Shown here: piece by piece, positions 37,547 to 64,000 of the stretch
How the letters are laid out: every line of letters starts with the position of its first letter
How positions within the stretch are numbered: position 1 is the stretch's first letter
Assembly (NCBI GenBank): GCA_000306725.1
Contig: CP003083.1
Coordinates: forward strand, 124,001-188,000
Length of the DNA: 64,000 bases
Source: Methanolobus psychrophilus R15
GTDB lineage: Archaea > Halobacteriota > Methanosarcinia > Methanosarcinales > Methanosarcinaceae
Direction of reading: 5' to 3'
Translations under genes and position numbers: made by a program
Notes under the pieces: model-generated
Told to the model about the DNA's origin: nothing
What the model saw: only the letters and a program-made list of their open reading frames with translations
The model's database searches: none

Positions 37547-37571
37547 ACAACATCACATGTGAGCGGATATC

Positions 37572-41287: not shown

Positions 41288-41300
41288 TGCCCACTCCGCT

Positions 41301-47700: not shown

Positions 47701-47710
47701 TATAACAGCA

Positions 47711-48310: not shown

Positions 48311-48520
48311 TTTTTTTGTTTGAGGCCTAGAAGAGTCACCCACATCAAAAGCAGATGCTCTTTATTGTAGTATTTCCAGTTTAATGTCTTTCGAAGCCAT
48401 CAATAGAGCGGAAAATAGAAACAACTTCATTGAACTCAGACTTTGAAATTCAATTATCGTAAGATTTATATTTTTATAGCCTATTGAACTTTATGTATTA
48501 TTGAACTCTGAGGAACTAAC

Positions 48521-48757
48521 ATGACATTGTTTATGGTAGATATTTTTAAAAAAAGCAATAAAGAGGACATCTGGGATGGACTTAAACCGCCTTCAATGTC
48601 AATATTCACTCTCTATTATAATTTAAAATGGAACGACGAACTGTATAAAATAGATAAACTTCCGATTTCTAAAAGATTGCTCTTTGCTTTCCTAAAGTTT
48701 ATTCAACTTTTCGCATATATTAAAGGTTGGAACACACTTGATAGTGACAAATTTTAA
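48521..48757 (+). CDS. Small protein at the head of the radical SAM operon
   Basis: A 78-aa protein with EDIWDGLKPPSMSIFTLYYN and an aromatic, Lys-rich second half. The KPPS plus hydrophobic stretch also occurs just before the first cysteine motif of the second radical SAM protein (LKPPSFVFIEIT), so it could be either a peptide substrate, a carrier-like domain or a shortened radical SAM relative. It overlaps the next gene by 20 bases. Family not recognised. Confidence 0.5.
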   Translation: MTLFMVDIFKKSNKEDIWDGLKPPSMSIFTLYYNLKWNDELYKIDKLPISKRLLFAFLKFIQLFAYIKGWNTLDSDKF

Positions 48758-49823
48758 TGAGGCAACAAAGCCAGACTCAAACGCATGTTCTTTGGCAATC
48801 AAAAACTTTGGATCTTTGCCAAATAATCTAAATGGAATTTGGAGCAGTGACCTTACTAATCACAAAAGTAAACCTCTACCTTTTCCTAAGAGACTTGTAG
48901 TTGAGATATTGAATAGTTGTAACCTCGACTGTCCAATGTGCAGAGTTGGCAGATACGGTGTAAACCTTAAACGTAAGCTTCCTTTAGATGTTTTTGAAAA
49001 GTTAATTTCAGGCCTAGCAGATAAATTAGAGTTAATCAGACTCAACGGTCTTGGTGAATCAACTTTATTACCTGATTTTGCGGAATATATTAACCTGATA
49101 TTAAGACATGGATTGACAGTGGAACTTATTACAAATGGTTCTGGTGAAATTGCAGACTATGAACTTATTTTGAAAAATAAAGGAATTCTGCTGATTTCGT
49201 GGGATGCGGGCGAAAAACACTTATTCGAAGCTCTGCGAAGACCAGCTAACTGGGAGTCTTATACTGACAAACTTGTTGAGATCTCTAATGCAGCTTGCCT
49301 TAATAGTGCTTCAGACAGGTTTTTCCTTTTGTTCACCCTCCAAAAACAAAACATTGATCAACTCCCTATTCTTGTCAAGAAGTGTAGAGAATGGGATATC
49401 AAAAATATACTTGTCAATGTGGTGAAGTCTTCAAACGACTCATGGATTACCGAAAACCTTCACGATATCAAACAAAACATGTCGCTGTCCTATAATATTG
49501 CTAATATGTATGGAATCAGTTTAATGATTCCGGATCAAATTGGCGGCAACGATCTGAATAATTTAGAAACGCTAAAAACGTCTGGCTCTGACTGCTGCAC
49601 TATGCCTTACGAAGAAGCTGTTATACGTTGGAATGGTGATGTGCAGGTCTGTAATATGTTTAATCCTTATATTTATGGAAATTTATACTTACAAACTTTT
49701 GACCAAATTTGGAATAACAAGTTTGCCCAAATATTTAGAAAACATCTGAATCTTTCAACCAAACATCCATATTGTTTAAACTGCGTCTACATGAGGGATT
49801 CTTATCATTGCAGAAAAGTATGA
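48738..49823 (+). CDS. Radical SAM/SPASM protein 1
   Basis: A 361-aa protein. The radical SAM cluster motif is NSCNLDCPMCRVG (CxxxCxxC), with GEST and glycine-rich strands after it (LNGLGESTLLPDF). The C-terminal SPASM-like region has DCCTMPYEEAVI, GDVQVCNMF, IYGNL and HPYCLNCVYMRDSYHC, giving extra Fe-S ligands. Such enzymes modify peptides, sugars or other small substrates. The substrate is unknown. The start is TTG 48738 or GTG 48744. Its stop overlaps the ATG expected for the kinase gene. Confidence 0.82.
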   Translation: MIVTNFNEATKPDSNACSLAIKNFGSLPNNLNGIWSSDLTNHKSKPLPFPKRLVVEILNSCNLDCPMCRVGRYGVNLKRKLPLDVFEKLISGLADKLELIRLNGLGESTLLPDFAEYINLILRHGLTVELITNGSGEIADYELILKNKGILLISWDAGEKHLFEALRRPANWESYTDKLVEISNAACLNSASDRFFLLFTLQKQNIDQLPILVKKCREWDIKNILVNVVKSSNDSWITENLHDIKQNMSLSYNIANMYGISLMIPDQIGGNDLNNLETLKTSGSDCCTMPYEEAVIRWNGDVQVCNMFNPYIYGNLYLQTFDQIWNNKFAQIFRKHLNLSTKHPYCLNCVYMRDSYHCRKV

Positions 49824-50304
49824 CCTGATATTAATAAGAGGAGCACCTGGAGTTGGAAAGTCAACCTTATCCAAGAAACTGAGATTATTTTTAAAAGAAG
49901 GAGCTACTGTTGAAGTTGATACAGTAAGGGATATGATAAATGACGTAAAATGGGTCAATTCGGAAGAACACATTAATGCTCTCGCTGCCACAGCTTCATT
50001 ATGTAAATCTTACTTTAATTCTTATCCACCCATTATCGTTGTAGATACTTTTAGCCCTTCCAAGCTAAAGTATTTCATTTCTCATTTCGAGAAGGAAGTA
50101 AAATACTTGGTAGTTTCATTGTACTGCCAAGATGAAATACTTACTGAAAGAATCATGAACCGCAAAACAGGATATAAAGAAATAGATAATTGTTTGATCC
50201 TTAATAGAGAAGTGGGGAAGTACCGTCACGAGAATGAACTTTTTATTGACACATCATTGATGGATGCCATTAATGTTTTTGATTTTGTGGTGAAAAGATT
50301 ATGA
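49820..50304 (+). pseudogene. P-loop kinase with a disrupted start
   Basis: The reading frame contains Walker A IRGAPGVGKSTL, a Thr/Asp patch VEVDTVRDMI, and IIVVDTFSPSKL and SLYCQDEILTERIMNRKTG, as in small polynucleotide-kinase/adenylyl-kinase-like proteins. The frame is open from 49795 but has no ATG, GTG or TTG before the Walker A; the first ATG is at 49933, after it. An ATG at 49820, overlapping the upstream stop as ATGA, fits a normal start if one base is missing just after it. Either a real frameshift, a non-standard start or a sequencing slip is present. The stop overlaps the next start. Confidence 0.7.
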
Positions 50305-51320
50305 ATATCAACACTTTTGAATCTTCATTGAAACCTCCTTCTTTTGTCTTTATAGAAATCACAAGAGAATGCAATTTAAGGTGCAAGCAGTGTCATATGT
50401 GGATGACCACGGACAACCCTAAAAAATCCCTGAGTTCGGAGCAAAAAGTAGAGATAATAGAGCAGTTTCATGATTTAAACTCCCGGGGAACAGTTGTTTT
50501 TACCGGGGGAGAAACCATGAAAAAAACTGATGAGTTCTTTTTGCTCTCAAAGAAATGTAGAGAGCTGAACTTAGCAAGTGCAGCGAATACTAATGGGACA
50601 TATATCATCAATGAGTTAATTGCACAAAAATGCGTAGATTATGGCCCTCAATACTTGGTAATTTCTCTAGATAGTCATCTAAAAGAAAAACATGACTATT
50701 TACGAGGTCAGCAAGGAACATTTGACCAAATCATCAATTCAGTATCTTTACTATTGAGTGCAAGGGCAGATTCTCAAAGCGCCAAAAATGTTCGAATTAT
50801 GATAAACTCCATACTTTGCGATTTAAACTACCAAGAACTTGATGATCTGGTACATTTTGCAAAAAAACTAGGCTTGGACGGTATTACCTTCCAAATAATT
50901 GGAAGGACCTTCTATAAACAAACGAAAAACGATCCCGCATTTGAACTATTCTTTCCTAAAGACAGAACGCTGTTTAAACAGAAAATTGATGAATTCGCTA
51001 ATAAGTATAGTTGTGACTCTTTTGTCTGTACGACTAAAAATGACTTTGAATGGATGAAATTGTACGTTGATAATCCTGATTTCATCGGTGAGCCCGTGTG
51101 TTCGTCACATGAGAATAATATAATGATAGATGTCGATGGTGAAGTGCAACTATGCTTTGGAATGAGAGAGCTGCTAGGTGGAAAGTCTTTAGGGAATGTG
51201 AAGAAACTTTCGTTAAGAGAACTTTGGTTTTCCAGTATTTCGGATGATGCAAGAAACATCATGAAGGAATGCAGAAAAAACTGTGGAATGCTAAACTGTC
51301 ATAGGAAGACTGAAGCATGA
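50301..51320 (+). CDS. Radical SAM/SPASM protein 2
   Basis: A 339-aa protein. The cluster motif is EITRECNLRCKQCHMWM and VVFTGGETMKK is the GGE-type SAM-binding strand. SPASM-like cysteines follow at PVCSSHENN, VQLCFGMRE and ECRKNCGMLNCHRK. Peptide- or sugar-modifying enzymes of the PqqE/SPASM class share this plan. Its start overlaps the kinase stop and its stop overlaps the glycosyltransferase start (ATGA), so the proteins are made in fixed ratio. The substrate is unknown. Confidence 0.85.
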   Translation: MNINTFESSLKPPSFVFIEITRECNLRCKQCHMWMTTDNPKKSLSSEQKVEIIEQFHDLNSRGTVVFTGGETMKKTDEFFLLSKKCRELNLASAANTNGTYIINELIAQKCVDYGPQYLVISLDSHLKEKHDYLRGQQGTFDQIINSVSLLLSARADSQSAKNVRIMINSILCDLNYQELDDLVHFAKKLGLDGITFQIIGRTFYKQTKNDPAFELFFPKDRTLFKQKIDEFANKYSCDSFVCTTKNDFEWMKLYVDNPDFIGEPVCSSHENNIMIDVDGEVQLCFGMRELLGGKSLGNVKKLSLRELWFSSISDDARNIMKECRKNCGMLNCHRKTEA

Positions 51321-52063
51321 AAAAAGAATTGCCTGTATCCTTGGTTATTCCGGTATATAACCGCATAGATAAAACAAAAAACTTATTAGATTCAATAAGG
51401 AATCTGGACTCAAGATGTGAAATAATCATTGTAGATGATTGCAGTACTGATGACATCAAAAGCTTGGTCGACGAATGTCATCCAAGTCTCGATATTAAAT
51501 ACATCCGGAATCAGAGTAATAAAGGTCCTTCATATTCAAGAAATATTGGAATAAAGACCGCTAAAAATGATTTCATCGCTTTTACCGATAATGATTGCAT
51601 TTTATCTCCCTCATGGATTGACAATCTATATGAATATATTTCAAATTCTCCATCCTCTATTGCAGGAGTTGGTGGCAGAACCCTGTCTTACAGAAAAAAC
51701 ATGTTGAGTGAATACTACGAGTATCATAAGATTTTGGATCCTTGGTTTCATGCTGGAAAATGTATGTATTTAGTAACTGCAAACTGCATTTTCAGAAAGT
51801 CAGTCTTAGCCGAAGTAGGATACTTCGACGAAAACATAGTTTGGGCAGGTGGAGAAGATGTGGGTCTGTCTTTTAAAGTCATAAATGGAGGTTTTAGCTT
51901 GGCATACTACCCCGATGCAATTGTTTATCATGACTTTGAAAACAGCATTCTAAACTTTTACAAAACTTTCTTCAAATATGGGTTTGGTTGTAGAATCCAA
52001 TATAAAAAATACTTTAACGAAAAGATGTATCAGAAACCAAACTTTGCAGGTTTCTATGAGTAA
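51317..52063 (+). CDS. Family 2 glycosyltransferase
   Basis: A 248-aa GT-A fold protein. SLVIPVYNRIDKTKNLLDSI and IIIVDDCSTDD bind the nucleotide sugar, AFTDNDCILSP is the DxD-like metal site, and WAGGEDVGLSFKV carries the catalytic acidic pair. It has no membrane anchor. It is the last gene of the radical SAM operon, suggesting that the pathway ends in sugar transfer to the radical SAM product. The acceptor is unknown. Confidence 0.87.
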   Translation: MKKELPVSLVIPVYNRIDKTKNLLDSIRNLDSRCEIIIVDDCSTDDIKSLVDECHPSLDIKYIRNQSNKGPSYSRNIGIKTAKNDFIAFTDNDCILSPSWIDNLYEYISNSPSSIAGVGGRTLSYRKNMLSEYYEYHKILDPWFHAGKCMYLVTANCIFRKSVLAEVGYFDENIVWAGGEDVGLSFKVINGGFSLAYYPDAIVYHDFENSILNFYKTFFKYGFGCRIQYKKYFNEKMYQKPNFAGFYE

Positions 52064-52464
52064 CAGTTATTAGACCATGTAGAGGATGCTACATTCACAC
52101 CATTAATACCACAAGGTCATAGTTTATATCGTTAAGGATCATTTGAGATATCGACTAGTGTTCATAATCTATTTTGTTATTGTAGATTTTCGAGCAGGGA
52201 TTAAGGATAAATCATAGCCCAATGACACACTGTCACCGAGATCGGAAAACGGCTGAGTGAATTTAAGAAAATGGCAACTACGATATGTTTACAAACACAA
52301 GTAATATGAAGTCTGAAAGCCAGACCTTTCTGGCAGAATATAAATCTTTCACCACCTACTTTTCTAATTCTATCAAAGATTTAGTGAGTTATGTTTCAGT
52401 CAACAAAAAGAAAACTTCATAACTCTAGCAATTATCCAAGTTCAGATTTTTTTAAATATACGAA
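52064..52464 (+). other. Intergenic stretch, possible 45-aa ORF
   Basis: No clear gene. A 45-codon plus-strand frame at 52285-52422 (opening MFTNTSNMKSESQTF) looks mildly protein-like and has no good ribosome binding site. The rest shows no repeat or RNA structure that I can identify. Confidence 0.2.
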
Positions 52465-53886
52465 TTATGTATAGTCTCCGTATTTTTTTCTATTTTCTTC
52501 AGCTCTTTTTCTAATAAGGTCTCCATAATTGATTATAGTAAAGTTGAGTATCCCTCTAAATGCAACTTGTTTCTTTTTTATCGGAAGAATACTCATGAGG
52601 TTTTCAAATGTTTCAAGCTCGTGCATTTTTATTCTGTAGGTTACTCTTATTCCGCTTTTATCATCCCTGGAAGATTTTGGATTTAAGAAGAGCTCTTTCA
52701 TTAAAGACCGTTTCTTATGGTATTCACCGTTAACAGCCATTTCAATTTTCGAGGAATATTCTATCCTCTGTATAGTCATATTTTGAACTTCAACTGTCCG
52801 TTCCTTTAGGAAGTCTTCACATTCATGTATGAAGATATTCATAATCCATTGAAAGGCGCCTGAGGGACTATCTGTTTTAAGAGCTACCATCAAGTCACTG
52901 ATCATTTCTTTTTCATCTGTTTTCAGATCGTAGCCAATTGTTGTATTAGTGTTCATTGCACGAGTTCTAGGTGGTATTGTGAAAAAACTGTTTAAATCTA
53001 TGCCACTTTTTACATGTTCATTCATTTTCTCACTTGACTCATAATCATCTTCAATATTATTAAAGTGTGTAGCATTGTTAATATGCTCTTTTGCTTCTTC
53101 ATCTAATCTATTTACTGTGTTGTAATGTTCTTCCCATATTTGCAGTAACTCTTTTGCAACTTCCTTGTAAGCTTTTGAGCCATCACCCTCGGGTTCGTAG
53201 GTAACTATTTTTTTGTCCGATGGGGATAATTTCTTAAGATTTATATCGAATGGAATTTTGACATCAAGCACTCTATCTTCAAATTTCTTCTCAATCTTTA
53301 GGACTGATTTTCGGACACAAGACCGTTGATCATGAAATGTAAGCAAAATATGACCAATATCCAGTTTTGGATTAGCATCTTGTTTAATTATTTCTACTAG
53401 TTTGATTAATTGAGAAATTTCATTAATGCAATAAAACCCATTTACAGGGATTAAAAGTGTATCAGCAGCAACAAGAATATTTTCTGCTAATAATCCACTC
53501 TCATCCGGTCCATCCAATAGTATGTAATCGTATGTATCTAGATTACTAGCTTCAAGTAATATTTTGAGTTTATTTTTCATTTTAGCGGGCCCACCATCAA
53601 AAATTGCATCTGACAACTTATTATCGGAGGGAACAATATACACATTATCATAAATTGTTTTACAAACACAGTTATCAATACTTCCTCCACGAAACCCGGT
53701 GATTATTGTTTTATAGTTTTCTTTCTGTTCACTTGGAAGCAAGGATTCTGTTAAATTCCCACAAGGACACAGATCGATGGTCAGTACTACATGCTTCATT
53801 AAACCAAGAGATCTAGCTATATGCATGGTCGTTGTTGTTTTTCCAACACCGCCTTTAGGGAAGATTATTGCAATTGTCTTTTTCAC
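52465..53886 (-). CDS. ParA-like ATPase with C-terminal extension
   Basis: A 473-aa protein. The deviant Walker A is FPKGGVGKTTTTMHIA, the switch region VVLTIDLCPCGNLTES and Walker B ILLDGPDESG. ParA proteins usually have 200-300 residues; here a second domain of about 200 residues (from EEAKEHINNAT to the end) follows, with VTYRIKMHELETFENLMSIL and a basic RKRAEENRKKYG tail, possibly the DNA-binding or centromere-binding part. No ParB gene is next to it. It points to a plasmid or integrated element. Confidence 0.8.
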   Translation of the reverse strand: MKKTIAIIFPKGGVGKTTTTMHIARSLGLMKHVVLTIDLCPCGNLTESLLPSEQKENYKTIITGFRGGSIDNCVCKTIYDNVYIVPSDNKLSDAIFDGGPAKMKNKLKILLEASNLDTYDYILLDGPDESGLLAENILVAADTLLIPVNGFYCINEISQLIKLVEIIKQDANPKLDIGHILLTFHDQRSCVRKSVLKIEKKFEDRVLDVKIPFDINLKKLSPSDKKIVTYEPEGDGSKAYKEVAKELLQIWEEHYNTVNRLDEEAKEHINNATHFNNIEDDYESSEKMNEHVKSGIDLNSFFTIPPRTRAMNTNTTIGYDLKTDEKEMISDLMVALKTDSPSGAFQWIMNIFIHECEDFLKERTVEVQNMTIQRIEYSSKIEMAVNGEYHKKRSLMKELFLNPKSSRDDKSGIRVTYRIKMHELETFENLMSILPIKKKQVAFRGILNFTIINYGDLIRKRAEENRKKYGDYT

Positions 53887-54054
53887 AATAACACCTTTAA
53901 AATAATTTAAATCTCACAATAGTATTGCATAAATCTTGTTGCTCCAAGTGAATACTTTACAGGTAACTTGATTTAAACCCGCAAGGTGAGATATATTACA
54001 AGATAGGGTATAACATTCACATTAATAAAGATGACTATTGATGACGAAATTTGC

Positions 54055-54066
54055 CGTGAATTCACG
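54055..54066 (+). promoter_or_regulatory. Perfect palindrome CGTGAATTCACG
   Basis: This 12-bp palindrome lies 170 bases upstream of the ParA-like gene and 75 before the Zn-ribbon/HTH gene. It could be an operator or a centromere-type site. The gap 53887-54139 holds no other obvious element. Confidence 0.3.
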
Positions 54067-54139
54067 TGAAAAATCAAATTATGGCTTATATAATACAGCT
54101 TAATTAATGACCTATGAAATGCTACATTGTTTTGATAAC

Positions 54140-54615
54140 ATGGCTCGTCCACGAAGTAAAATTGACATGATATGCCAAAATTCATCTTGTAATTACTACC
54201 TTGCAGAAAAAGGAAAGGACATCATAAAGCGCGGAAAGAATGGTGCTGGAAACCAACAGTATTTTTGTAAACATTGTAGATCGTGGTTTGTGGAAACCGT
54301 AAACACTCCTTTGTATTATAAACACCTTCCACTGCCAGAAATCGCTTATATTTGTTATCTTTTATCCTCTGGTTATAGTATCCGTTATATTGCAAAGATG
54401 ACTGACCATAACAGAAACACTATTTGCCATTTACTTGATGATTTAGTTGTTAACCCAACATACATTAATAACATTTTTCTCAAAAAATCACTAATGGACC
54501 AATCGGAAATTAATAAACTGTGGTATGCAATTCTAAAAAAGAAAAAAAATCATTAAGCAAGGAAGCCCGCAATCAGATTAGGAAATTAATATCTGATCCC
54601 AGAGGTAAAATATGA
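54140..54615 (+). pseudogene. IS1-like Zn-ribbon/HTH transposase N-part, frameshifted
   Basis: A zinc ribbon (CQNSSCNYY, FCKHCRSWFVE) and an HTH (GYSIRYIAKMTDHNRNTICH) match the N-terminal part of IS1-type transposases; LYYKHLPLPEIAYI is also characteristic. The annotated frame stops at 54556 just after an A-rich run (54541-54549). With one base shifted, the sequence continues naturally as SLSKEARNQIRKLISDPRGK up to 54615. No DDE domain follows, so the element is incomplete or the protein is a solo DNA-binding derivative. Confidence 0.65.
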
Positions 54616-54664
54616 AAAAAGCAGAGGAAAGCAACCTTCCGCCAACATTTCTATTTTACTTTTG

Positions 54665-55987
54665 TTAGTTCTTGAAATTAGCCTTGTTAATTAACATAAT
54701 GAACCGTACCTTTGTGATCTCACAGTCCATTGTGAGTCTCAGTAATTCGTTCTGCAACGTTGCTTCTTTGTTCATCATCACTTGCTGTGACCGAATACGT
54801 TGAAGTTCATCGAAAGCATTATGGTATTCTTTTGACACATTGACTTGCTCTTTCAGCAAATTGCGCACAGACTCAAGCTCATGTTCCTTTGTCTTATATA
54901 CTAGAGAATTTTCGATATCATCACTCTCATTAATCAACAAGTATGAAAGGTATTTCTGGTACGTTTCCTCAAGATGAGAAGTCTGATACTTAAAATACGC
55001 AGCAACTGTGTCATTACTCTGGTGCCCCATGAAGTGTTCAATCATATTGAAATCGCAACCAGCGTTCAATAAAGCCGAAGCAAAGAACTTCCTCATGTTA
55101 TGGCTTCTAAAAAGGTTGTACACTCCTGGCGTATTACTCTTAGCACTGATTTTCTCAGAGATAATTGTATATATCTCCTGAATGTTCTTCGTGGTTAGTG
55201 CTCTGTCGCTTTCTATGCCTGATTTAATATAAGTTCCCAACTTTTTGTTACGGATGAAAAGCGGACTGTCAGGAGTGATTCTTATCTTCCGATATTCACT
55301 CAAATCGCTATTGATCATCTCATTGACATCTTTGTCTCTTGTGTGAAGATAAGCAAATACAGCCTGAGATGCCTCTGGAGATAAGAATGTTGTAAACACG
55401 CGGCCAGTTTTCTGTCTTGCGATCTGAAGGGTCACAATACCATTTTTGGAGTTGTATCCTTCGTAGAACTGCTTTGCAGTCAGATTACAAATATCAATTG
55501 CCGATAGTCCAGAGCTGACTGCAACCAGAATGATTGCACGATCTCTAATGCCGGCAAATTTCAGTGCTTTTCTTATCAACTCTTTATTTGGAATCTTCTG
55601 ATTCGCAGGTCGTGATGAAGCTCTTCTTTGCTGTTCGAGTGATTTTGGAGGAGCTGCAAAATGATATATATTGAAAAATGTTGTAATTACACTCATGTAC
55701 TTTCCAATAGTAGATGCTGCATAGGGGATACCATTCTTGCAGGTCCATGTCGCAAGTTCATTTCTGAAGGAAATGATTAGCAAAAAATGAATCATTTTCT
55801 CAGGTTCAATGCCCTGTTTTCGTTCCTCAATTGCTGTTTCGATGAGGGTCGAAGGAGTTTGCTTTGCGTACATACAGAATAAACGCAAGGCAGTATAATA
55901 CCCTGATATGGTGCTTTTATTTCTAATCCCTTTGATTTGGAGGACGTACAGCACTCGCTTGTCCGAAAGGATCTCGTCGTATGTCAC
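54665..55987 (-). CDS. Tyrosine recombinase/integrase, homologue of 14118-15434
   Basis: A 440-aa protein. The N-domain GIRNKSTISGYYTALRLFCM and the catalytic HxxR box FRSHNMRKFFASAL, His in FMGHQSNDT and Tyr in FKYQTS are visible. The first active-site Arg is replaced, as in the homologue (SSGLSAIDICNL). Similarity to the plus-strand recombinase runs end to end, including the coiled-coil tail. Start and stop overlap the short upstream gene by ATGA. The two integrases bracket the defence island in opposite orientation. Confidence 0.85.
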   Translation of the reverse strand: MTYDEILSDKRVLYVLQIKGIRNKSTISGYYTALRLFCMYAKQTPSTLIETAIEERKQGIEPEKMIHFLLIISFRNELATWTCKNGIPYAASTIGKYMSVITTFFNIYHFAAPPKSLEQQRRASSRPANQKIPNKELIRKALKFAGIRDRAIILVAVSSGLSAIDICNLTAKQFYEGYNSKNGIVTLQIARQKTGRVFTTFLSPEASQAVFAYLHTRDKDVNEMINSDLSEYRKIRITPDSPLFIRNKKLGTYIKSGIESDRALTTKNIQEIYTIISEKISAKSNTPGVYNLFRSHNMRKFFASALLNAGCDFNMIEHFMGHQSNDTVAAYFKYQTSHLEETYQKYLSYLLINESDDIENSLVYKTKEHELESVRNLLKEQVNVSKEYHNAFDELQRIRSQQVMMNKEATLQNELLRLTMDCEITKVRFIMLINKANFKN

Positions 55988-56283
55988 GGCAGGCCCTCCT
56001 CGAGAATTTCGCCCGTGACTATTTCAAGAACGATCTGTGCAAGAGCATTCTGAATAATATTCTCGTTAGACTTCCATGCTTTAAGCATTTGTGGTTCATT
56101 TGCATAGAGTTCTATTGCATGTTGCTTTAAGGACAGATATTTATATTCCAAAATACAATTATCTGTGATTGGGTTCAACGATGTAGGCACATCGCTACTC
56201 GATCTGCAGGGGGTGGCAGATGTGTTGGAAGCATGGCCGCCGCCCTCTCTAGATTTTGTTTTACTTTTCATATTACTCCTCAC
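55984..56283 (-). CDS. Small protein coupled to the recombinase
   Basis: A 99-aa protein. The first 40 residues are polar and disordered (TKSREGGGHASNTSATP); the C-terminal 60 are helical (YKYLSLKQHAIELYANEPQM, NALAQIVLEIVTGEI). The ATGA overlap with the integrase start means translational coupling. It may be a directionality or partner factor, based on position only. No family recognised. Confidence 0.55.
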   Translation of the reverse strand: MRSNMKSKTKSREGGGHASNTSATPCRSSSDVPTSLNPITDNCILEYKYLSLKQHAIELYANEPQMLKAWKSNENIIQNALAQIVLEIVTGEILEEGLP

Positions 56284-56456
56284 TTAGGTTTTCTACTGTT
56301 ATATGCAAAATAATAATATAATTATTGTATGTATTTAATTGTATCCTATATTCTTCAGGAAACAGCAATTTAGTTTAAAATCTTCTTATTCTACAGTGCT
56401 TTCACATCGCAGTTTTCCCCATAATTATTAAATAAAGAAAATCTATTTTACATGTT

Positions 56457-57284
56457 ATGCAAAATAGAGTATTACAAGATATTTTCAAAGATGAATCATT
56501 CGCAGGACTTCTATATCTTGCATCAATGGATGAGAAGACAAATGAAGATACACTATTTTATCTTTATAAAAAACCTACTTCTTGTACATCAACATTTCAG
56601 AAAGCAAGGAAACTATTGATGGATAATAACGCATTGGAGAGCAGGAATATCTATGGAAAAAAAGGGCTCATTTCAGTTTTACGTGCAAAACCCGAACCTT
56701 ATCTCGATTATTTAAGTGGTCGAATTAAAGAATGTAATAATCATAAACAAATAAATCTTGATTTATCTGATATTGAAATTCGCTACCTCAAATTTATTTT
56801 TAATTCCCAATTGTTCAGAAAAACATTTTTTAACGTAGATTTATTTGGAAAACCTGAATATGCATATAACGTTTCATTAGTTCTCGATCATAAAGGAAGA
56901 GCACACGCTTATGATATTTTTAGATGGATAGATCTGATTTTTGTTACAATGATTCCCTATCTAAGAGAATTATATGTCAATGGTTTTGAGGATCTATTCT
57001 TAGATGATATTCGCACTTTTTTGGACTATGAATACCCGGACGACTTTGTCAATGCCCGGATGTCTGCAGTTCCTGAAGAGAGGGCCAAGCAAGTTAGGGC
57101 ATATTGTAGTGATTTCCTTTCAAGTACTTTTGGGAAGTATCCTCATGTACAATATATGCTAAATAACGTCATAGCAAATAATTTCTTTACAGTCTTTAAC
57201 TATAACTTTTTAGCAAAACTTTATGTGATAATGGATTTTGATAGTGGTCTAAGTCTCACAGACACATTCATCGAGGATTTGTAG
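56457..57284 (+). CDS. Uncharacterised protein, N-terminal winged-helix-like
   Basis: A 275-aa protein. The first 85 residues (FAGLLYLASMDEKTNEDTLF, STFQKARKLLMDNNALES) look like a winged helix of the type in archaeal plasmid proteins; the rest is helical with no motif that I recognise. The TATA-like TTATTAAATAAAG lies near 56427. It is convergent with the leftmost gene of the casposon, with a 109-base gap, and so probably lies just outside it. Confidence 0.5.
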   Translation: MQNRVLQDIFKDESFAGLLYLASMDEKTNEDTLFYLYKKPTSCTSTFQKARKLLMDNNALESRNIYGKKGLISVLRAKPEPYLDYLSGRIKECNNHKQINLDLSDIEIRYLKFIFNSQLFRKTFFNVDLFGKPEYAYNVSLVLDHKGRAHAYDIFRWIDLIFVTMIPYLRELYVNGFEDLFLDDIRTFLDYEYPDDFVNARMSAVPEERAKQVRAYCSDFLSSTFGKYPHVQYMLNNVIANNFFTVFNYNFLAKLYVIMDFDSGLSLTDTFIEDL

Positions 57285-57393
57285 TGTATTAGATACAGTG
57301 ATAAAGATAAAATATATATAGTAATAAATCTCACACAGATGTGTCAGTAATATTCTGGCATTGCAACAAAAAAAAAGATGAAAAACATCTGGT

Positions 57394-58227
57394 TTATTCC
57401 TGCTCTTCTCTCAGGAAGAATGAGTATATACTAGTTCTTCCTGCATTAATACTGCAAGCTCTCATCAAGCTATTAGATTTTTCAAAAATATCACTATTAA
57501 GTAAACTAATTTCTGCAACAGTTAATGCTTCACCTGCTTTTTTGTCTTTGAAAGCAATATCTCTGCTTCTTTCATAATATTGAATGAATTCACAAAGACA
57601 ATTATAATAATGCTCAAACTTAAAGAAAATAGAAATATGTTCCTTCCGATGTTTAGAGTATTTTTCAATATTGTCTTTGTTACAAGTTAAATGATAATAA
57701 TTCTCTTGCTCATTATATTTAACAGTTAGAAGAACTTTGCGAAAAATGTTTATTGCTTCTAGTTCATATATTTGCCAATAAGAATAGTAACTTTCAGATT
57801 TTTGTAACCTCCATTTCTCCCCTTCTTCATCAATATGATTTAACACGTAATTTTCCCATTCAATAAAATCACTAGCATATGGATTTATTAGATATTCCTG
57901 CCAGTCTTTATTCGTTTCATCAAATGGATGCTCTTTTTTTGCATAGAAAGATAAATTTCGGAACTCAAAGATATTTTCTTCAAGATGTATTAATGGTAAA
58001 CAAACAGTCGGAAGTACAATTTTGTCAGGTGGAATTAAGATTTTCTGATGGTTAAATATAGCATACTCATCATTAAACAACCATCTTTTCACTGGGAAAA
58101 ACAATTTCTCTTTTTCGAATAACTCTAATCTTTGATCGTCAATTGGAATCGAATTTTTTTTGCAGAAGGTGATAAAATCATCTTTTCTCATAAACCTGCA
58201 ATTTGTATAATCAGGGTACATAGACAT
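57394..58227 (-). CDS. Casposon accessory protein downstream of the casposase
   Basis: A 277-aa soluble protein beginning MSMYPDYTNCRFMRKDDFI. It is rich in aromatic residues (ESYYSYWQIYELEAINIF, HYYNCLCEFIQYYE). No catalytic motif is visible. It starts two bases after the casposase stop (or overlaps it if an upstream methionine at 58245 is used), so it belongs to the same transcript. It is the leftmost casposon gene seen. Function unknown. Confidence 0.55.
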   Translation of the reverse strand: MSMYPDYTNCRFMRKDDFITFCKKNSIPIDDQRLELFEKEKLFFPVKRWLFNDEYAIFNHQKILIPPDKIVLPTVCLPLIHLEENIFEFRNLSFYAKKEHPFDETNKDWQEYLINPYASDFIEWENYVLNHIDEEGEKWRLQKSESYYSYWQIYELEAINIFRKVLLTVKYNEQENYYHLTCNKDNIEKYSKHRKEHISIFFKFEHYYNCLCEFIQYYERSRDIAFKDKKAGEALTVAEISLLNSDIFEKSNSLMRACSINAGRTSIYSFFLREEQE

Positions 58228-58229
58228 AA

Positions 58230-59432
58230 TTAATAACCTTCCCAAATATCCAACCTCTCCCTTACATGAGAATTTAATGTAAAAGGCTTCTCAGCCTTGG
58301 CATTTTTCTTCATATAATGCAATGTCCCTTTAGAAAACCCCATATTCTCCCAATCTGTATAGGATATGCTCATTATCTTCTGCCTGATATCATCTGAATC
58401 CTGTCTTTCAACTGTATATACAGGCTTGCAGAAATCAATATCCTTCTTCTTCTCAACAAGGAACTGAGCAAGCTCCCTAGTCTTCAATAACAAGGCATAA
58501 CTCCACATAACCGATTGTTTCTGATAAGATGTTTTCCTGTTCATCCATTTATTGAACTCTTCAGTGATTTTCTTTGCTCCAGAAGGTTTTAGCCTGAGTG
58601 AATAACTTTCAGTCCTGATAAAATCGCTATTATCCATTTTCTCCGATTCAATCAGGTTGATAACCGAGAGATCAACAAGGAATCTAAAAGGCTCTTGCAG
58701 GTCATAGGCTAAACTGTCTTTGCTTGGATTCATCTCATGCAAGAAACCTACATGAGAATCAAGACCTGCCGTATTTATGGCTCTCAGGCACTCCGCTTCA
58801 AGCAATGCATAGCCATAGTTGAGCATAACGTTTACTTTATCCCCTGCCCCTGTGGCTCTCCTGTATTGGTCACTTCTTGAACAGAAATCATATTCAACAG
58901 GAACAGCCTTTGCAAACTCGTTCCAGTACTTCCATGCAACTCCACCTTCAACACCCATTATTTCCCTAACAGATTTAGCAGCATTCAATTTTCCAATATC
59001 TTCTAAGAAATCATATTCTATTGCAGGATATCGTTGTTTAAGGTAGTCCAGTACTACTTTGGACTTATCGAACTTGGCTTCAATTAGGTTCTTTGCAATT
59101 TTGGCTCTTATATCCTCATCTTCATAAGCATGATACTGTGAGAACTTGATCTTTATATTGGTACTTTCAGGAGGAAGCATTGCAGTGAGTAGCTGACCAT
59201 CCCAGTTTAGAATAGATACCTGAACGTTATGTTTTATCAACCATCTAACAGAATCAAGAGTAAGGTTTCCATTTCTGCCATAAATGATAATGTGGTCTAC
59301 ATCCATCCTCTTTGGAGAGAATATATACTCTTCAGGCTCTTCAGTTGTTGAGGTTCTGCCATTCTTGATATGCAGTTTTGCACTATTGACACGCATGTCT
59401 ATTCCATGACCGTTTAAAAGAAGCATCTTCAT
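58230..59432 (-). CDS. Casposase (Cas1-family integrase)
   Basis: A 400-aa protein. The Cas1 fold is seen from the N-terminal beta domain (DHIIIYGRNGNLTLDSVRWL) to the helical catalytic domain. The catalytic residues are present: Glu162 (GVEGGVAWKYW), His232 (VGFLHEMN) and Asp244 (LAYDLQEPFR). Residues about 340-385 form the HTH typical of casposases and absent from CRISPR Cas1 (SISYTDWENMGFSKGTLHY). It inserts the casposon by cutting and joining 3' ends at a target, making a target duplication. The start overlaps the wHTH gene stop (TAATG). Activity is likely. Confidence 0.93.
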   Translation of the reverse strand: MKMLLLNGHGIDMRVNSAKLHIKNGRTSTTEEPEEYIFSPKRMDVDHIIIYGRNGNLTLDSVRWLIKHNVQVSILNWDGQLLTAMLPPESTNIKIKFSQYHAYEDEDIRAKIAKNLIEAKFDKSKVVLDYLKQRYPAIEYDFLEDIGKLNAAKSVREIMGVEGGVAWKYWNEFAKAVPVEYDFCSRSDQYRRATGAGDKVNVMLNYGYALLEAECLRAINTAGLDSHVGFLHEMNPSKDSLAYDLQEPFRFLVDLSVINLIESEKMDNSDFIRTESYSLRLKPSGAKKITEEFNKWMNRKTSYQKQSVMWSYALLLKTRELAQFLVEKKKDIDFCKPVYTVERQDSDDIRQKIMSISYTDWENMGFSKGTLHYMKKNAKAEKPFTLNSHVRERLDIWEGY

Positions 59433-60343
59433 TAAAAATCAGCCTCCACTTCCTTAATATGCCCTAGCAACTTGGCTACTTCATGTTTTATGTTGTAAAC
59501 AAGCCGTGCTTCTTCGTTTTTACCTTCTTTCTTGAAGTCATTTATTAAGTTGAATAATTCCAGTTTATGCTTATCAATAATCCAAGCAGTGTAAATACTC
59601 CCGTAATCATCTTTGATTTTCTTGAAAGTTGCTTCATCTATTTCTTTTCTAAAGGCGAAGTTTAATTCAATATCATATTTCAACCAATTAATTATGGAAT
59701 CATCTTCAAAGTAACCAAGAATGAATATCATTCCTGTTCTATAATCCTCATGATCTCTGGAAACTCCGGCAAATTTACCTAGTAGCTCATTCAGTGATTT
59801 GAGCAGTCCTTCTTTGTTAGTGGGAGTAATTTCTCTATCAAGAATGTACTCTTTCAGAATCCTGAGTATATGGAATTGCAGTTTTTCATTCGTGATAAGC
59901 AGACTATCAACTAAAACATCTAATTGCTTTCTTGATAGTGAATATGTATCTTTGTAGAGATCAATCTCATTCAGAATTGAATTTTTATCATATTCATCAT
60001 CTGATTCAAAATGAGAAAATAGCGTATCCAGATACTCATTAATATTAAATATTTCTTTTAATGTCAAGTATGAGGCTCTTTCATCTTCCTCATGGAGTCC
60101 GTATTTTGCTAAATCTTTATGTTTAACAATAACCAAAGAACCATTCTTAGTCATTCTTGCAAGCTTACGTTCTACACTTGGTCTAGAGCATCCTCTCGTT
60201 CTTTGAAGGACATTCATCATGTGTTCAATGAGTTGCGCCCTTCTGACAAAGCGGTTTTGACGTACATATTTGACTATTTCTACATCAAAGTCTACATCAG
60301 TTTTTCTATTATCTATATTGTTTGATGGTAATTTAGCTATCAT
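59432..60343 (-). CDS. Casposon winged-helix protein
   Basis: A 303-aa protein. The N-terminal DVEIVKYVRQNRFVRRAQLI and SRPSVERKLARMTKNGSLVI form a winged helix; the remainder is helical with no recognised domain. The ATG at 60343 is chosen because an upstream TTG at 60355 would put the start inside a palindrome. It is the first gene of the casposase operon and probably controls it by binding the inverted repeats at 60319-60359. Confidence 0.7.
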   Translation of the reverse strand: MIAKLPSNNIDNRKTDVDFDVEIVKYVRQNRFVRRAQLIEHMMNVLQRTRGCSRPSVERKLARMTKNGSLVIVKHKDLAKYGLHEEDERASYLTLKEIFNINEYLDTLFSHFESDDEYDKNSILNEIDLYKDTYSLSRKQLDVLVDSLLITNEKLQFHILRILKEYILDREITPTNKEGLLKSLNELLGKFAGVSRDHEDYRTGMIFILGYFEDDSIINWLKYDIELNFAFRKEIDEATFKKIKDDYGSIYTAWIIDKHKLELFNLINDFKKEGKNEEARLVYNIKHEVAKLLGHIKEVEADF

Positions 60344-60387
60344 GTTTACTATCAAACATTACATCAAATACATATATAGAGCTTTCC
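60319..60387 (+). promoter_or_regulatory. Divergent promoter with inverted repeats
   Basis: TGTTTGAT at 60319-60326 is the exact inverse of ATCAAACA at 60351-60358. A tighter repeat, ATGTTT-ACTATC-AAACAT, spans 60342-60359. A TATA-like ATATATAG at 60373 serves the plus-strand genes. Both casposon transcripts start within this 44-base gap, so a shared repressor site is likely. Confidence 0.5.
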
Positions 60388-60555
60388 ATGCTAGTGGTTT
60401 TTGGTGATTATGTGTACACCAACAGTCAAAGAATAATAACAACACTTTCTCCTTTCCTCAAGGAGAAACTTGAACAGATGTCAGATAAGTTTGGATGCTC
60501 TCAGGCTGAAGTGGTCAGAATAGCCTTAATGAAACTCTGGGAGGCTGAGAAATGA
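60388..60555 (+). CDS. Ribbon-helix-helix protein
   Basis: A 55-aa protein with the RHH pattern: strand RIITTLSPFL, helix KEKLEQMSDKFG, then SQAEVVRIALMKLWEAEK. Such proteins repress their own promoter as dimers. The ATG at 60388 lies very close to the TATA box, so a GTG at 60412 (eight codons later) may be the true start of a leaderless transcript. It overlaps the next gene by ATGA. Confidence 0.7.
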   Translation: MLVVFGDYVYTNSQRIITTLSPFLKEKLEQMSDKFGCSQAEVVRIALMKLWEAEK

Positions 60556-61190
60556 GCAGGCCTGAGTTTTCCAGAGACTATAGGACTTATGGGGAATGGC
60601 TCAAAGTGCAACAGAGAGATTCCAGATATGCAAAGGAGATCATCAGAAAGCATGAGAGATTTCCAGATAAGAGCCTGAACCAACTGAGAAATCTGAAGGT
60701 AAGTGATTATAACCTGAGCCAAACAGCTTGGCAAAGCCTGACTTCCCAACAGAAGAGTGATAGAAATCTATCACTTGAAATCTTGAGATCAGTCAGGAAG
60801 GGAGAGTCATTAACTCAGGTATTGGAGAAAAGAGGACTCAGAAGAGAATTTGTATTGAAGACTCTGGGCAATCAGTTTCAAAAGTCTAATGGAAAATGGA
60901 TTGCACACAAGACTGATAGCCTTGAAGCTGAAATGAGGTTTACTTCAAAGGATGAAGTCAGAACTATTGTAACAACCTCCTCTAAAGACAGAAGTAGGAT
61001 TGCAAAGTACTTTAATGATGTTCAGAAGGCTTTGAAGAACAATGATGATTCTGCTCTTAGGAAATACAAGACTCTAAAGATCATTGATGCAAAAGGTAAA
61101 GAGCATCAGTTTGAAACAGACCTTGATAGGCTGTATGAGATAGAGGAAGCTCAGGAAGAACCCGAATTTCAGGAGATTTATCAAAGTTAA
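60552..61190 (+). CDS. Casposon protein of unknown function
   Basis: A 212-aa basic, helical protein (RNLKVSDYNLSQTAWQSLTS, SLEILRSVRKGESLTQVLEK, RDEVRTIVTTSSKDRSRIAKY region). The second stretch, GESLTQVLEKRGLRREFVLK, resembles an HTH. It is overlapped on the left by the RHH gene (ATGA) and followed after 12 bases by the HNH gene. It could be an accessory DNA-binding protein of replication. Family not recognised. Confidence 0.55.
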   Translation: MSRPEFSRDYRTYGEWLKVQQRDSRYAKEIIRKHERFPDKSLNQLRNLKVSDYNLSQTAWQSLTSQQKSDRNLSLEILRSVRKGESLTQVLEKRGLRREFVLKTLGNQFQKSNGKWIAHKTDSLEAEMRFTSKDEVRTIVTTSSKDRSRIAKYFNDVQKALKNNDDSALRKYKTLKIIDAKGKEHQFETDLDRLYEIEEAQEEPEFQEIYQS

Positions 61191-61202
61191 GGAGTGGATA
61201 CT

Positions 61203-61535
61203 ATGGATAAAACAGAATACCATAATAGCATTAAACAACAACAGAGGCAAGGAACCACAGTTCTTTGCTGTAATGCTTGCGGAGAAGATGATTCCTCAGT
61301 AATTGAAATACATCATATCTTTGGCAGAAAAAACTCCCAAAAGACAGTACCTTTATGCAAAAACTGTCATGCAAAGATTACATGTCAACAAAATAAACTT
61401 GCACCAAAGATAAGAGCTTCAAACGCTTCCAAAGAGGATAATGCAAGATTTGTTTTTATTTCAATGGGAGGAATCTTGAGAGTAATAGGAGATCAGTTAG
61501 TTTACTATGGGCATAATGGTGATTTTAGTGAGTAA
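61203..61535 (+). CDS. HNH endonuclease of the casposon
   Basis: A 110-aa protein. A zinc knuckle LCCNACGED, the core VIEIHHIFGRKN and VPLCKNCHAKIT give the CxxC...HH...CxxCH pattern of HNH nucleases. HNH enzymes of this kind are part of many casposons; the exact step is unknown. The ATG at 61203 has AAGGAG at seven bases; the GTG at 61194 overlaps that site and is less likely. The 3' end overlaps the polymerase start by 20 bases. Confidence 0.87.
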   Translation: MDKTEYHNSIKQQQRQGTTVLCCNACGEDDSSVIEIHHIFGRKNSQKTVPLCKNCHAKITCQQNKLAPKIRASNASKEDNARFVFISMGGILRVIGDQLVYYGHNGDFSE

Positions 61536-64000
61536 GATTGCTGTAAGGGGATATACTCAGAAGAGTAGGGAATTTTCAGGTAATCCCTATTTTACTCCAA
61601 AGGATATTCCTATAAGAAAGGATATTCCTAGAAAGGATATTCCTATAAGACATGACAGGGTATTAGTCTTTGATACTGAAACTACTATAGATACGTATCA
61701 GAATCTTAAAATAGGGTACTTTCAAATCTATCAGGATGGCTATATTCAGCATGAAGGGCTATTCTATAATCCCTATACCCTATCCGGTAATGAAAAGAAT
61801 CCCTATATCTTATCCGATAATGAACAGAAAATCTGTTTTATCTATAGTTCTAGATACGATTTAGCTATTTATACCCTTAATGAGTTTATAGATAATGTAT
61901 TCTATCCAGAGGTATATACCCTAAAAACGTTATGTATTGGCTTTAATTTACCTTTTGATGTATCTAGATTAGCTAAGGGTATGGGTATATCCAGAGCTAA
62001 GAATAAAGGAGGATTTACCTTTACTCTGTCAGGGAATATATTTAGTCCCCCTATTATCATCAAAAAAATAGGAGATGCCCATACTTTCAAGTTCACCACT
62101 ACTAAAGTGAATACGGGAGAAGATTATTTTTCAGGATATTTCCTTGATGTTCAAACTTTAGCCGAAGTTCTCCTTCAATCAAAGCGTATTTCCCTTGAAA
62201 AAGCAGGAGAAAAACTCAATACAAGCACACAGAAAATGAAAAATATCGAGCATGGAAGGGTAACAGAGAGATATATTGATTACTTGATTACTGATGTTGA
62301 AACAACCTTTGAGGTATATCAAAAGCTAATTACTGAACTTGATACTTATCAAATAGATATCCCACTAACCAAGATATACAGCTCTGCATCTATTGGCAAA
62401 TATGCATTGAAGCAGTTAGGAATAAAACCATTCCTTGAATTAAATCCCGATTTCTCTCCTGAGATGCTTGGAAACATCATGACCTCTTATTATGGAGGAA
62501 GGTGTGAATGCACGATTAGGAAAGTTCCAACAAAAGTAACAACTCTTGATTTCACAAGCATGTATCCAACCATTGCTATGGAAATGGATCTCTGGAAGTT
62601 CATTATTGCTGAATCTATTGAAATGAAAGTTGTTACTGATGAAATCAAGGAGATGCTCTCAAAAGTAAACCTTGATTATCTTCAAAATAAGAATAACTGG
62701 AAGGACTTTGTTGTAATGGTTAAGTTGCAACCAAAAGATGATATTTTACCTGCGAGGAAAGATTACAAAGGCTCTGGAACAGGCTATAATGTAGGAATCA
62801 ACTATCTCAGCTCTAATTCTGAATTATGGTATGCTTTACCTGATGTTATAGGCTCTGTTCTCCTTACTGGGAAAGTACCTGAGGTTGTGGAAGCAATCAG
62901 GTTTATTCCAAAGGGCACTCAGAAGGGTTTAAAGAGCTCTAAGATTCTCGGAATTGATATTAATCCTGAAAAGGTCAATCTTGTTCAGGTACTTGTTGAA
63001 GAAAGACAGAAAATTAAGATGAAGGATGTTAATAAAGAAAGTCCAGAGCATCAACAACTAAAGAGCAGAGCCCAAGCTATCAAGATTCTTGTTAATGCAA
63101 TGAGCTATGGAATATTTATTGAGCTAAACCCCGAAGATAAGAAAAGTACTATTCAAGTTTATGGCTTAGATAGTTTTGAAACCTCAGAGAATAGATATGA
63201 GAAAGCAGGTAATTTTTATCATCCTTTGCTTGCCGTTATGATTACTTCAGGTTCTAAGTTATTCTTGGCTATGGCAGAAGCAAAAACCAAAGAGTTTGGT
63301 TCTGTTCATGCATATATGGATACTGATTCTATCTTTGTTCCTCCTGAACATGCACAGGAGATTATAGACTATTTTCAACCATTAAATCCATACAGCCTTG
63401 ACATTGCTTTATTGAAGGCTGAAAAAGTGGATATGTGGTTTTATGGTATATCCTCAAAACGTTATCCTCTGTATAAATTCAGGAAAAACAAAATCATTTT
63501 CAAAGATTTCAAACTTCATGGATTAGGGCATTTAACAAATCCATTCTCAAAAGATGGAGGAGGAGACTGGCATGAGGAAATATGGGAAGATCTCCTTAAG
63601 TTGCACTATGGGATAATTACAGAACTTGATATTGAAGAGAAATACTCTAATCTTTATGCAATCTCAAGGCTTACTGTTAGTACTCCTAATGTATGGAGCA
63701 GGTTTAAGACTCTTAATAAAGGGAAAGTATGGGAAGAGCAGATCAAGCCTTCAAATTTCTATCTTGTAGGATTTCAGACAACAGAAGAGAACGGGAAAGC
63801 TGTCAAGCCTTTAGCACCTTTTACAACTGATTATCAAAAGATCGTTCATGAGCCTTTTATTGATTATGGGACAGGAGAGATTAAGCACGGTTCTCATCAT
63901 TTCAAGCAATTAAGCAGGACAATAATAGAATATGCCAATCATTCTGAGTCTAAGTTTTATGGTGATATTGGAGTATTAGAAAGAAAGCATGTTAAGGCTG
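61516..64000 (+). CDS. polB: Family B DNA polymerase of the casposon (3' end outside window)
   Basis: 828 codons are visible. Exonuclease motifs are VFDTETTIDT, CIGFNLPFDVSRL and YLITDVETTF. Polymerase motifs are TLDFTSMYPTIAM (A), IKILVNAMSYGIFIE (B) and HAYMDTDSIFVP (C), then SSKRYPLYKF. All catalytic Asp residues are present, so the enzyme is probably active and copies the excised element. Two short near-tandem repeats lie in the N-terminal 100 codons. The start at 61516 (MVILVSK) overlaps the HNH gene; GTG 61519 is possible. The frame is open at the window end. Confidence 0.93.
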   Translation, partial: MVILVSKIAVRGYTQKSREFSGNPYFTPKDIPIRKDIPRKDIPIRHDRVLVFDTETTIDTYQNLKIGYFQIYQDGYIQHEGLFYNPYTLSGNEKNPYILSDNEQKICFIYSSRYDLAIYTLNEFIDNVFYPEVYTLKTLCIGFNLPFDVSRLAKGMGISRAKNKGGFTFTLSGNIFSPPIIIKKIGDAHTFKFTTTKVNTGEDYFSGYFLDVQTLAEVLLQSKRISLEKAGEKLNTSTQKMKNIEHGRVTERYIDYLITDVETTFEVYQKLITELDTYQIDIPLTKIYSSASIGKYALKQLGIKPFLELNPDFSPEMLGNIMTSYYGGRCECTIRKVPTKVTTLDFTSMYPTIAMEMDLWKFIIAESIEMKVVTDEIKEMLSKVNLDYLQNKNNWKDFVVMVKLQPKDDILPARKDYKGSGTGYNVGINYLSSNSELWYALPDVIGSVLLTGKVPEVVEAIRFIPKGTQKGLKSSKILGIDINPEKVNLVQVLVEERQKIKMKDVNKESPEHQQLKSRAQAIKILVNAMSYGIFIELNPEDKKSTIQVYGLDSFETSENRYEKAGNFYHPLLAVMITSGSKLFLAMAEAKTKEFGSVHAYMDTDSIFVPPEHAQEIIDYFQPLNPYSLDIALLKAEKVDMWFYGISSKRYPLYKFRKNKIIFKDFKLHGLGHLTNPFSKDGGGDWHEEIWEDLLKLHYGIITELDIEEKYSNLYAISRLTVSTPNVWSRFKTLNKGKVWEEQIKPSNFYLVGFQTTEENGKAVKPLAPFTTDYQKIVHEPFIDYGTGEIKHGSHHFKQLSRTIIEYANHSESKFYGDIGVLERKHVKA
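61597..61824 (+). repeat. Two near-tandem repeats in the polB start region
   Basis: AAAGGATATTCCT occurs three times between 61599 and 61649. A 27-base unit starting AATCCCTATA is repeated at 61768-61794 and 61798-61824 with four differences. Both keep the reading frame, adding KDIP and NPY-LS-DNE units to the protein. Confidence 0.75.

What the first reader, a model, noticed from the sequence alone, without database searches (positions are those of the whole stretch)
57394..64000. Casposon with intact casposase, HNH nuclease and polymerase B
The element carries a Cas1-family integrase with E162, H232 and D244, a casposase-type C-terminal HTH, an HNH nuclease and a family B polymerase, without cas2 or an array. 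This is the definition of a casposon. The operon organisation on the left (wHTH, casposase, unknown protein) and on the right (RHH, unknown, HNH, polymerase) appears complete, so it may be mobile. Casposons are known, but individual cargo genes here are unnamed.
Basis: partly seen in the sequence, partly recalled or inferred. Interest (0 to 1): 0.85.

Follow-up and report, generated by a model that had tools for sequence, protein, structure and literature searches.

The report
Casposon carrying a nested defence island
The Cas1-like integrase belongs to a genuine casposon (the kind of transposon thought to have given rise to CRISPR's spacer-inserting enzyme), and a 43-kb island of anti-virus genes, including a BREX system, has lodged inside it, making it about three times larger than any described casposon; it stands in a row of casposons beside a tRNA-Leu gene, a site occupied in all 23 related genomes that could be checked.

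Summary
The genes are as described, and the element is a family-2-type casposon in a Methanolobus genome. The assembly continues past 64000, and the element runs from 13054 to 65505 (52,452 bp). Its terminal inverted repeats are identical over 30 bp and exact 14-bp target duplications (AATGGGAATGTGCG) flank it. It is the middle member of a head-to-tail row (decayed 2.3-kb remnant, this element, a 16.7-kb casposon) ending at a tRNA-Leu(TAA) gene.

About 43.3 kb inside it (about 14075-57389) is a separate integrative island. It has a tyrosine-recombinase gene at each end, an imperfect 22-bp direct repeat (18/22) as putative att sites, and higher G+C than the casposon. It carries BREX-1, McrBC, a Gabija-like UvrD helicase-nuclease and other genes. 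A sister island with the same ends (69-79% identical) but DISARM cargo lies outside any recognised casposon in another Methanolobus. Without the island the casposon is an ordinary 9.1 kb.

Tandem casposons at tRNA-Leu are already known. A nested defence island, the 52-kb size, occupancy of this tRNA site in 23/23 checked Methanolobus genomes, and decay away from the tRNA were not found in the papers I could search. Movement of the whole unit by the casposase is possible but not shown.

The parts
13040..13053 (+). left 14-bp target-site duplication AATGGGAATGTGCG
   Evidence: exact copies only at 13040, 65506 (L006:11506-11519) and 82225 (L007:8225-8238, next to tRNA-Leu) in 88 kb
13054..13083 (+). 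left terminal inverted repeat of the casposon
   Evidence: 30/30 identical to the reverse complement of the right end at 65476-65505 (L006:11476-11505); end-motif score 36.6, random 200 kb gives none >=12
13054..64000 (.). casposon (element 1); continues to 65505 outside the window (L006:11505); 52,452 bp in all
   Evidence: TIR and TSD pairing
13152..13982 (-). casposon accessory ORF, 276 aa, no family
14075..14096 (+). putative att copy (left end of nested island), CTGGTTTATACCCGATGTTCTC
   Evidence: 18/22 direct repeat with 57389-57410; 0 of 399 random window pairs reach it; homology with sister islands begins at 14061 (G020) and 14077 (G025)
14067..15434 (+). tyrosine recombinase 1 (likely start 14118)
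   Evidence: Pfam Phage_integrase 49.5 bits; 69% ortholog at G025 C3:231286-232623
17592..20586 (+). McrBC restriction pair (AAA 17592-19256; McrC 19225-20586)
   Evidence: Pfam McrBC 288.9 bits
22902..23483 (+). BrxB
   Evidence: Pfam and PADLOC
23504..27061 (+). BrxC
   Evidence: NCBIfam BREX_BrxC 1206.6 bits
27058..28923 (+). PglX, N-terminal (methylase) polypeptide
   Evidence: NCBIfam BREX_1_MTaseX positions 2-651 of 1210
28860..30392 (+). Schlafen AlbA_2 / ATPase protein between the two PglX halves
30847..32553 (+). PglX, C-terminal polypeptide
   Evidence: NCBIfam BREX_1_MTaseX positions 654-1209
33225..34898 (+). HD-domain dGTPase-like protein
   Evidence: PADLOC dGTPase 267.7 bits
34925..37546 (+). 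PglZ (BREX-1, type A)
   Evidence: TIGR02687 877.6 bits
37572..39611 (+). BrxL
   Evidence: TIGR02653 1170.9 bits
39842..47275 (-). CoiA-like protein, SF2 helicase with TPRs, UvrD helicase with PD-(D/E)XK nuclease (GajB-like)
   Evidence: Pfam and PADLOC
47711..52063 (+). wHTH regulator, two radical-SAM/SPASM proteins, glycosyltransferase
52465..53886 (-). ParA-like ATPase
54665..55987 (-). tyrosine recombinase 2, facing recombinase 1
   Evidence: Pfam 53 bits; 69% ortholog at G025 C3:198708-200024
56457..57284 (+). island-end protein, 275 aa, unnamed
   Evidence: 72% ortholog at the matching end of the G025 island
57389..57410 (+). putative att copy (right end of nested island), overlapping the stop codon of ORF 57394-58245
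57394..58245 (-). casposon ORF, 283 aa, overlapping the casposase end; island integrated at its 3' end
58230..59432 (-). casposase (Cas1-family integrase with C-terminal HTH)
   Evidence: 6opm 635 bits; E162, H232, E247 present
59432..60355 (-). winged-helix protein of the casposase operon
60388..61190 (+). ribbon-helix-helix-like ORF and conserved 212-aa casposon protein
   Evidence: conserved in L011 and other casposons
61194..61535 (+). HNH nuclease
   Evidence: sub-threshold Pfam HNH plus motif
61507..64000 (+). family B DNA polymerase, 910 aa, continues to 64239 (L006:10239)
   Evidence: Pfam DNA_pol_B 25.8 bits
10783..13039 (.). element 0: decayed casposon remnant, left neighbour in the row
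   Evidence: end motifs 24.1 and 25.6; 82-84% casposase C-terminal fragment

Best explanation
A family-2-type casposon of about 9.1 kb inserted at the 3' end of a tRNA-Leu(TAA) gene in Methanolobus. The casposase joined its two terminal repeats to a staggered cut whose repair left a 14-bp duplication (the last 4 bp of the tRNA plus 10 bp). Earlier and later casposons used the same site, building a row with the newest next to the tRNA. An unrelated integrative island of 43.3 kb, bounded by two inward-facing tyrosine recombinases and carrying BREX-1, McrBC and other defence genes, then integrated by site-specific recombination at the 3' end of the casposon gene just downstream of the casposase. 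It left both terminal repeats intact, so the pair now forms one 52-kb unit that the casposase could in principle move. Shown by sequence: the TIRs, TSDs, row, gene content, island ends and a sister island. Inferred: the enzymes' actions, the order of events and any present mobility.
For: TIR arms identical 30/30 and TSD exact 14/14 at 13040 and 65506, repeated at the tRNA. A motif built from 23 relatives' ends finds exactly six ends in 83 kb, correctly paired, and none in 200 kb of random sequence. The nearest relative by casposase (90% identical) is a complete 8,245-bp casposon with the same TIR and its own 14-bp TSD at another tRNA; the two share only 58.2-64.2 kb plus the TIRs. Other complete casposons at this site with an intact casposase are 9.0-16.7 kb. 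Island: sister in G025 with matching ends (69-79% identical), different interior (DISARM: DrmA, DrmB, DrmMII) and no recognised casposon end within about 50 kb; direct repeats at both islands' ends, 18/22 in G000 (0 of 399 random pairs) and 13/13 in G025; G+C 0.30 just outside both att sites, 0.38 just inside the left one and 0.40 over the island. The same BREX island occurs in G002, G005 and G006 with no recognised casposon end nearby.
Against: No genome was found with this casposon lacking the island, so the empty att site was not seen. The right island boundary rests on the direct repeat alone (homology with G025 stops at 57280, 109 bp short). The 22-bp repeat is imperfect. At the usual first catalytic arginine both recombinases read GLA/GLS, a family-wide feature whose effect on activity is unknown.
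Confidence: 0.8

Rival explanations
1. A single giant casposon: the casposase transposed the 52 kb as one unit, having gathered defence cargo gene by gene, with no separate island.
For: Perfect TIRs and TSDs bound the whole; other casposons carry some nuclease and methylase cargo (PMC4046053, PMC6563490).
Against: Two-recombinase ends shared with an island in G025 that has other cargo and no recognised casposon ends; att-like repeats; G+C step at the boundaries. The other complete casposons seen here at this site are 16.7 kb or less.
Confidence: 0.1
2. Fusion of two tandem casposons: the left end belongs to one and the right end to another, and a defence island lying between them was enclosed by deletions, with no recombinase-mediated insertion into the casposon.
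For: Element 0 looks like such a hybrid, with different left and right TSDs; in G020 the same BREX island lies directly beside a casposon row.
Against: The ends are identical over 30 bp and share the TSD; no trace of a second casposase or PolB near the left end; the island keeps both its own ends.
Confidence: 0.08
3. The Cas1 gene belongs to a CRISPR-Cas adaptation module.
For: It scores against generic Cas1 models.
Against: No Cas2 in the genome; full-length match to the M. mazei casposase; TIRs and TSDs.
Confidence: 0.01

Closest known systems
Family 2 casposons of Methanosarcina mazei (MetMaz-C1 and relatives)
   Same: casposase, PolB with C-terminal HTH-like tail, HNH, two HTH proteins; TIR starting GGGATATAG; 14-bp TSD ending TGCG at the 3' end of tRNA-Leu; tandem copies known (PMC10359463, PMC6977970, PMC9939771)
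   Different: 52 kb instead of about 6-16 kb; contains a 43-kb recombinase-bounded defence island
Casposon rc(L011):8867-17111, Methanolobus sp. Soudan_28
   Same: casposase 90% identical, same TIR family, same core genes, 14-bp TSD at a tRNA
   Different: 8.2 kb, no island; a single 287-aa gene in place of the island side
Tyrosine-recombinase integrative elements and defence islands carrying BREX or DISARM
   Same: integrases, att-like direct repeats, swappable defence cargo
   Different: a recombinase at both ends facing inward, and here integrated inside a casposon; no plasmid relative of recombinase 2 covering more than half of it

Membership tests
Casposon (family 2) | Cas1-family casposase with conserved active site, no cas2 | tested here: met
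Casposon (family 2) | family B DNA polymerase, HNH nuclease, two HTH proteins | tested here: met
   (HNH by motif, sub-threshold Pfam)
Casposon (family 2) | terminal inverted repeats | tested here: met
   30/30 at 13054 and 65505
Casposon (family 2) | target-site duplication of about 14 bp at a tRNA 3' end | tested here: met
   14/14, tRNA-Leu(TAA) at L007:8234-8318
Casposon (family 2) | size about 6-16 kb | tested here: not met
   52,452 bp as it stands; 9,138 bp without the nested island. Size is a description, not a defining mechanism
Casposon (family 2) | transposition activity | not testable with these tools
   needs an excision or insertion assay
BREX type 1 | BrxB, BrxC, PglX, PglZ type A, BrxL | tested here: met
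   PglX is in two polypeptides
BREX type 1 | BrxA | tested here: not met
   no BrxA model hits the ORFs upstream of brxB that were scanned
Tyrosine-recombinase integrative element | integrase gene next to one end and direct-repeat att sites | tested here: met
Tyrosine-recombinase integrative element | empty site in a relative | tested here: inconclusive
   no relative with this casposon lacking the island was found; ORF 57394-58245 had no match in the loci fetched
CRISPR-Cas adaptation module | cas2 beside cas1, CRISPR array | tested here: not met
   no Cas2 in the genome; arrays were not searched for

The most novel reading that the evidence does not exclude
The casposase mobilises the whole 52-kb composite, so casposons act as vehicles that carry innate-immunity islands between archaea. 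The two-recombinase island is a family of swappable defence cassettes (BREX in one, DISARM in another) that can use transposons such as casposons as landing sites.
Probability: 0.2. Interest if true: 0.8.

Novelty: new variant of a known kind. Interest (0 to 1): 0.6.

Why it matters
Casposons are the proposed ancestors of the CRISPR spacer-insertion machinery. This locus shows one loaded with innate immune systems, and it stands in a row of casposons separated by target duplications next to a tRNA 'leader', as CRISPR spacers are separated by repeats. The Methanolobus set gives many natural rows in which the idea of leader-end growth and tail-end decay can be tested directly. The island gives a comparison (BREX versus DISARM in the same ends) for how archaeal defence systems are exchanged.

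Tried and rejected
A left boundary at 57394 (reader): rejected, no TIR or TSD there. CRISPR-Cas1: rejected. The idea that the recombinases target the casposase 3' end (casposase fragments lie beside related recombinases in G020 and G012): checked in 20 further casposase-tail fragments, none had a related recombinase within the 3 kb or less fetched on each side, so dropped. Displaced 3' half of the native tRNA-Leu: searched over the whole genome, not found. A donor of the foreign tRNA with the same TSD: not found in 112 family genomes, though the tRNA itself is closest to another genus. Plasmid relatives of recombinase 2: one weak 23% match over 47% of it. Casposase in IMG/VR: none confirmed. 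The primary paper on Methanosarcina tandem casposons (Krupovic 2016) is not held; its content is taken from papers that cite it.

Full report
Setting. The window is bases 124001-188000 of a single 3.07-Mb contig. Casposase hits at matching coordinates in named Methanolobus records place it in that genus. I extended the sequence to window coordinate 88000 using L006 (window = L006 + 54000) and L007 (window = L007 + 74000).

Observation. The casposase matches the solved M. mazei casposase along its whole length. The published active site is E162, H232 and E247 (PMC6977970). There is no Cas2 gene in the genome.

Ends of the element. Next to a tRNA-Leu(TAA) gene at 82234-82318 the sequence AATGGGAATGTGCG is followed on its left by a casposon end. 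The same 14 bp occurs exactly two more times in 88 kb, at 65506 and 13040. Between 13054 and 65505 the two ends are identical over 30 bp. A weight matrix built from the tRNA-adjacent ends of 23 genomes finds six ends in 83 kb here, in three correct pairs, and none in 200 kb of random sequence. The reported casposase therefore lies in a 52,452-bp element, between a 16,705-bp casposon on the tRNA side (65520-82224) and a decayed 2,257-bp remnant on the other side (10783-13039).

Core versus cargo. The relative with the closest casposase (90%) is a complete 8,245-bp casposon in Methanolobus sp. Soudan_28, with the same terminal repeat and an exact 14-bp duplication at another tRNA. It matches element 1 only at the two ends and between 58.2 and 64.2 kb. 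Published family-2 casposons span about 6-16 kb (PMC9939771) and the thaumarchaeal ones are all under 20 kb (PMC6563490). The other complete casposons with an intact casposase that I could delimit at this site are 9.0-16.7 kb.

The nested island. The cargo includes McrBC, a BREX-1 set (BrxB, BrxC, PglX in two polypeptides, PglZ type A, BrxL), a dGTPase-like protein, an SF2 helicase, a UvrD helicase with a PD-(D/E)XK nuclease, two radical-SAM proteins, a glycosyltransferase and ParA. BrxA was not found. It begins and ends with tyrosine-recombinase genes that face inward, at 14067 and 54665. In G025 (contig 3, 197-233 kb) both recombinases and the adjoining 275-aa gene recur at 69-72% protein and 74-79% DNA identity in the same relative arrangement. 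Almost all of the DNA between them is different there and encodes DISARM (DrmA, DrmB, DrmMII), and there is no recognised casposon end within about 50 kb. A 22-bp repeat (18/22) flanks the G000 island at 14075 and 57389, and a 13-bp exact repeat flanks the G025 island. The right copy in G000 covers the stop codon of the 283-aa casposon gene beside the casposase, a classic 3'-end attachment position. G+C is 0.30 just outside both copies, 0.38 just inside the left one, and 0.40 over the island as a whole. Without the island the casposon is 9,138 bp. The same BREX island occurs elsewhere in the genus without recognised casposon ends (G002, G005, G006) and, in G020, immediately beside a casposon row.

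How it works. The casposon steps follow the published M. mazei mechanism: target at the tRNA-Leu 3' end, 14-bp duplication, tandem insertion (PMC6977970, PMC10359463). That the island entered by tyrosine recombination into a resident casposon is inferred from its anatomy and its sister. It could also have entered before the casposon landed here. Nothing shows that the 52-kb unit moves. PMC10359463 attributes the different excision frequencies of two M. mazei variants enlarged by 9-18 kb possibly to a size effect, so large size may hinder movement.

The row. In all 23 Methanolobus genomes with usable sequence, a casposon end lies exactly 14 bp from this tRNA. In the nine rows with two or more recognised elements, the tRNA-proximal casposase is intact in 9/9 and the distal ones in 2/14 (Fisher p = 7e-5 by my count). 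The choice of resolvable rows biases this, and the genomes are related, so the p-value is only indicative. In G022 and G021 the duplications further from the tRNA differ from the one at the tRNA. Tandem casposons are known from Methanosarcina and one thaumarchaeon (PMC6563490), so the arrangement is not new; the genus-wide occupancy and the polarity I did not find reported.

Limits. No empty att site was found, the right island edge rests on the repeat alone, recombinase activity is unknown, and the literature search covers open-access papers only. One search for casposon with BREX returned three papers, none with casposon as a main topic by its title or abstract; I did not read them.

Noticed in passing
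L007:8234-8426 (window-extended 82234-82426): The tRNA-Leu(TAA) that hosts the row is foreign: 91-93% identical to tRNAs of another genus of the family (its member G070 appears to be Methanomethylovorans) but 83-88% to Methanolobus. The native tRNA-Leu is cut in the anticodon loop; only its 5' half (100% to G018) remains and its 3' half is absent from the genome. G033 of another genus has the same full-tRNA-plus-half arrangement, suggesting an integrative element that carries its own tRNA-Leu.
   Followed up: partly
L018 and L147 (Methanomethylovorans MAG), next to tRNA-Leu: Between two exact 14-bp target duplications lies only a 13-bp piece, GGGATATATACAA, the tip of a casposon end: a repeat-spacer-repeat-leader structure in miniature, either a spacer-like insertion or a deletion remnant.
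   Followed up: partly
tRNA-Leu(TAA) loci of G001-G026: All 23 checked genomes have a casposon end 14 bp from this tRNA; rows of up to four elements, with decay away from the tRNA.
   Followed up: yes
L160 and L159 (G025 C3:197-233 kb): Sister two-recombinase island carrying DISARM (DrmA, DrmB, DrmMII), a deaminase-domain ATPase and a TPR protein.
   Followed up: partly
window 27058-32553: PglX is split into methylase and C-terminal polypeptides with a Schlafen/ATPase gene and a small ORF between them; the order recurs in G002, G005 and G006, while G020 has the split without the inserted genes.
   Followed up: partly
L007:2139-7197 (window-extended 76139-81197): In element 2 a 2.2-kb stretch is repeated at 99.2% identity 2.9 kb away, giving a second PolB 3' end and duplicate nuclease-like genes; an inverted 56-bp copy of one gene start lies at 66354.
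   Followed up: no
window 10769-13053: Element 0 has an ancestral-type left duplication (AAAAACCAGATGTG) and the new right one, so it is probably a deletion hybrid of two casposons; a partly duplicated IS transposase adjoins it.
   Followed up: partly
whole Methanolobus genomes: Dozens of isolated fragments keep only the last 30-45 residues (HTH tail) of the casposase, including several in this genome; the reason is unclear.
   Followed up: partly
L132:12828 onwards (G020 C1:52828): A casposon row in G020 with duplication CGAACTTTAATGGG sits directly beside a BREX island and not at a recognisable tRNA.
   Followed up: partly
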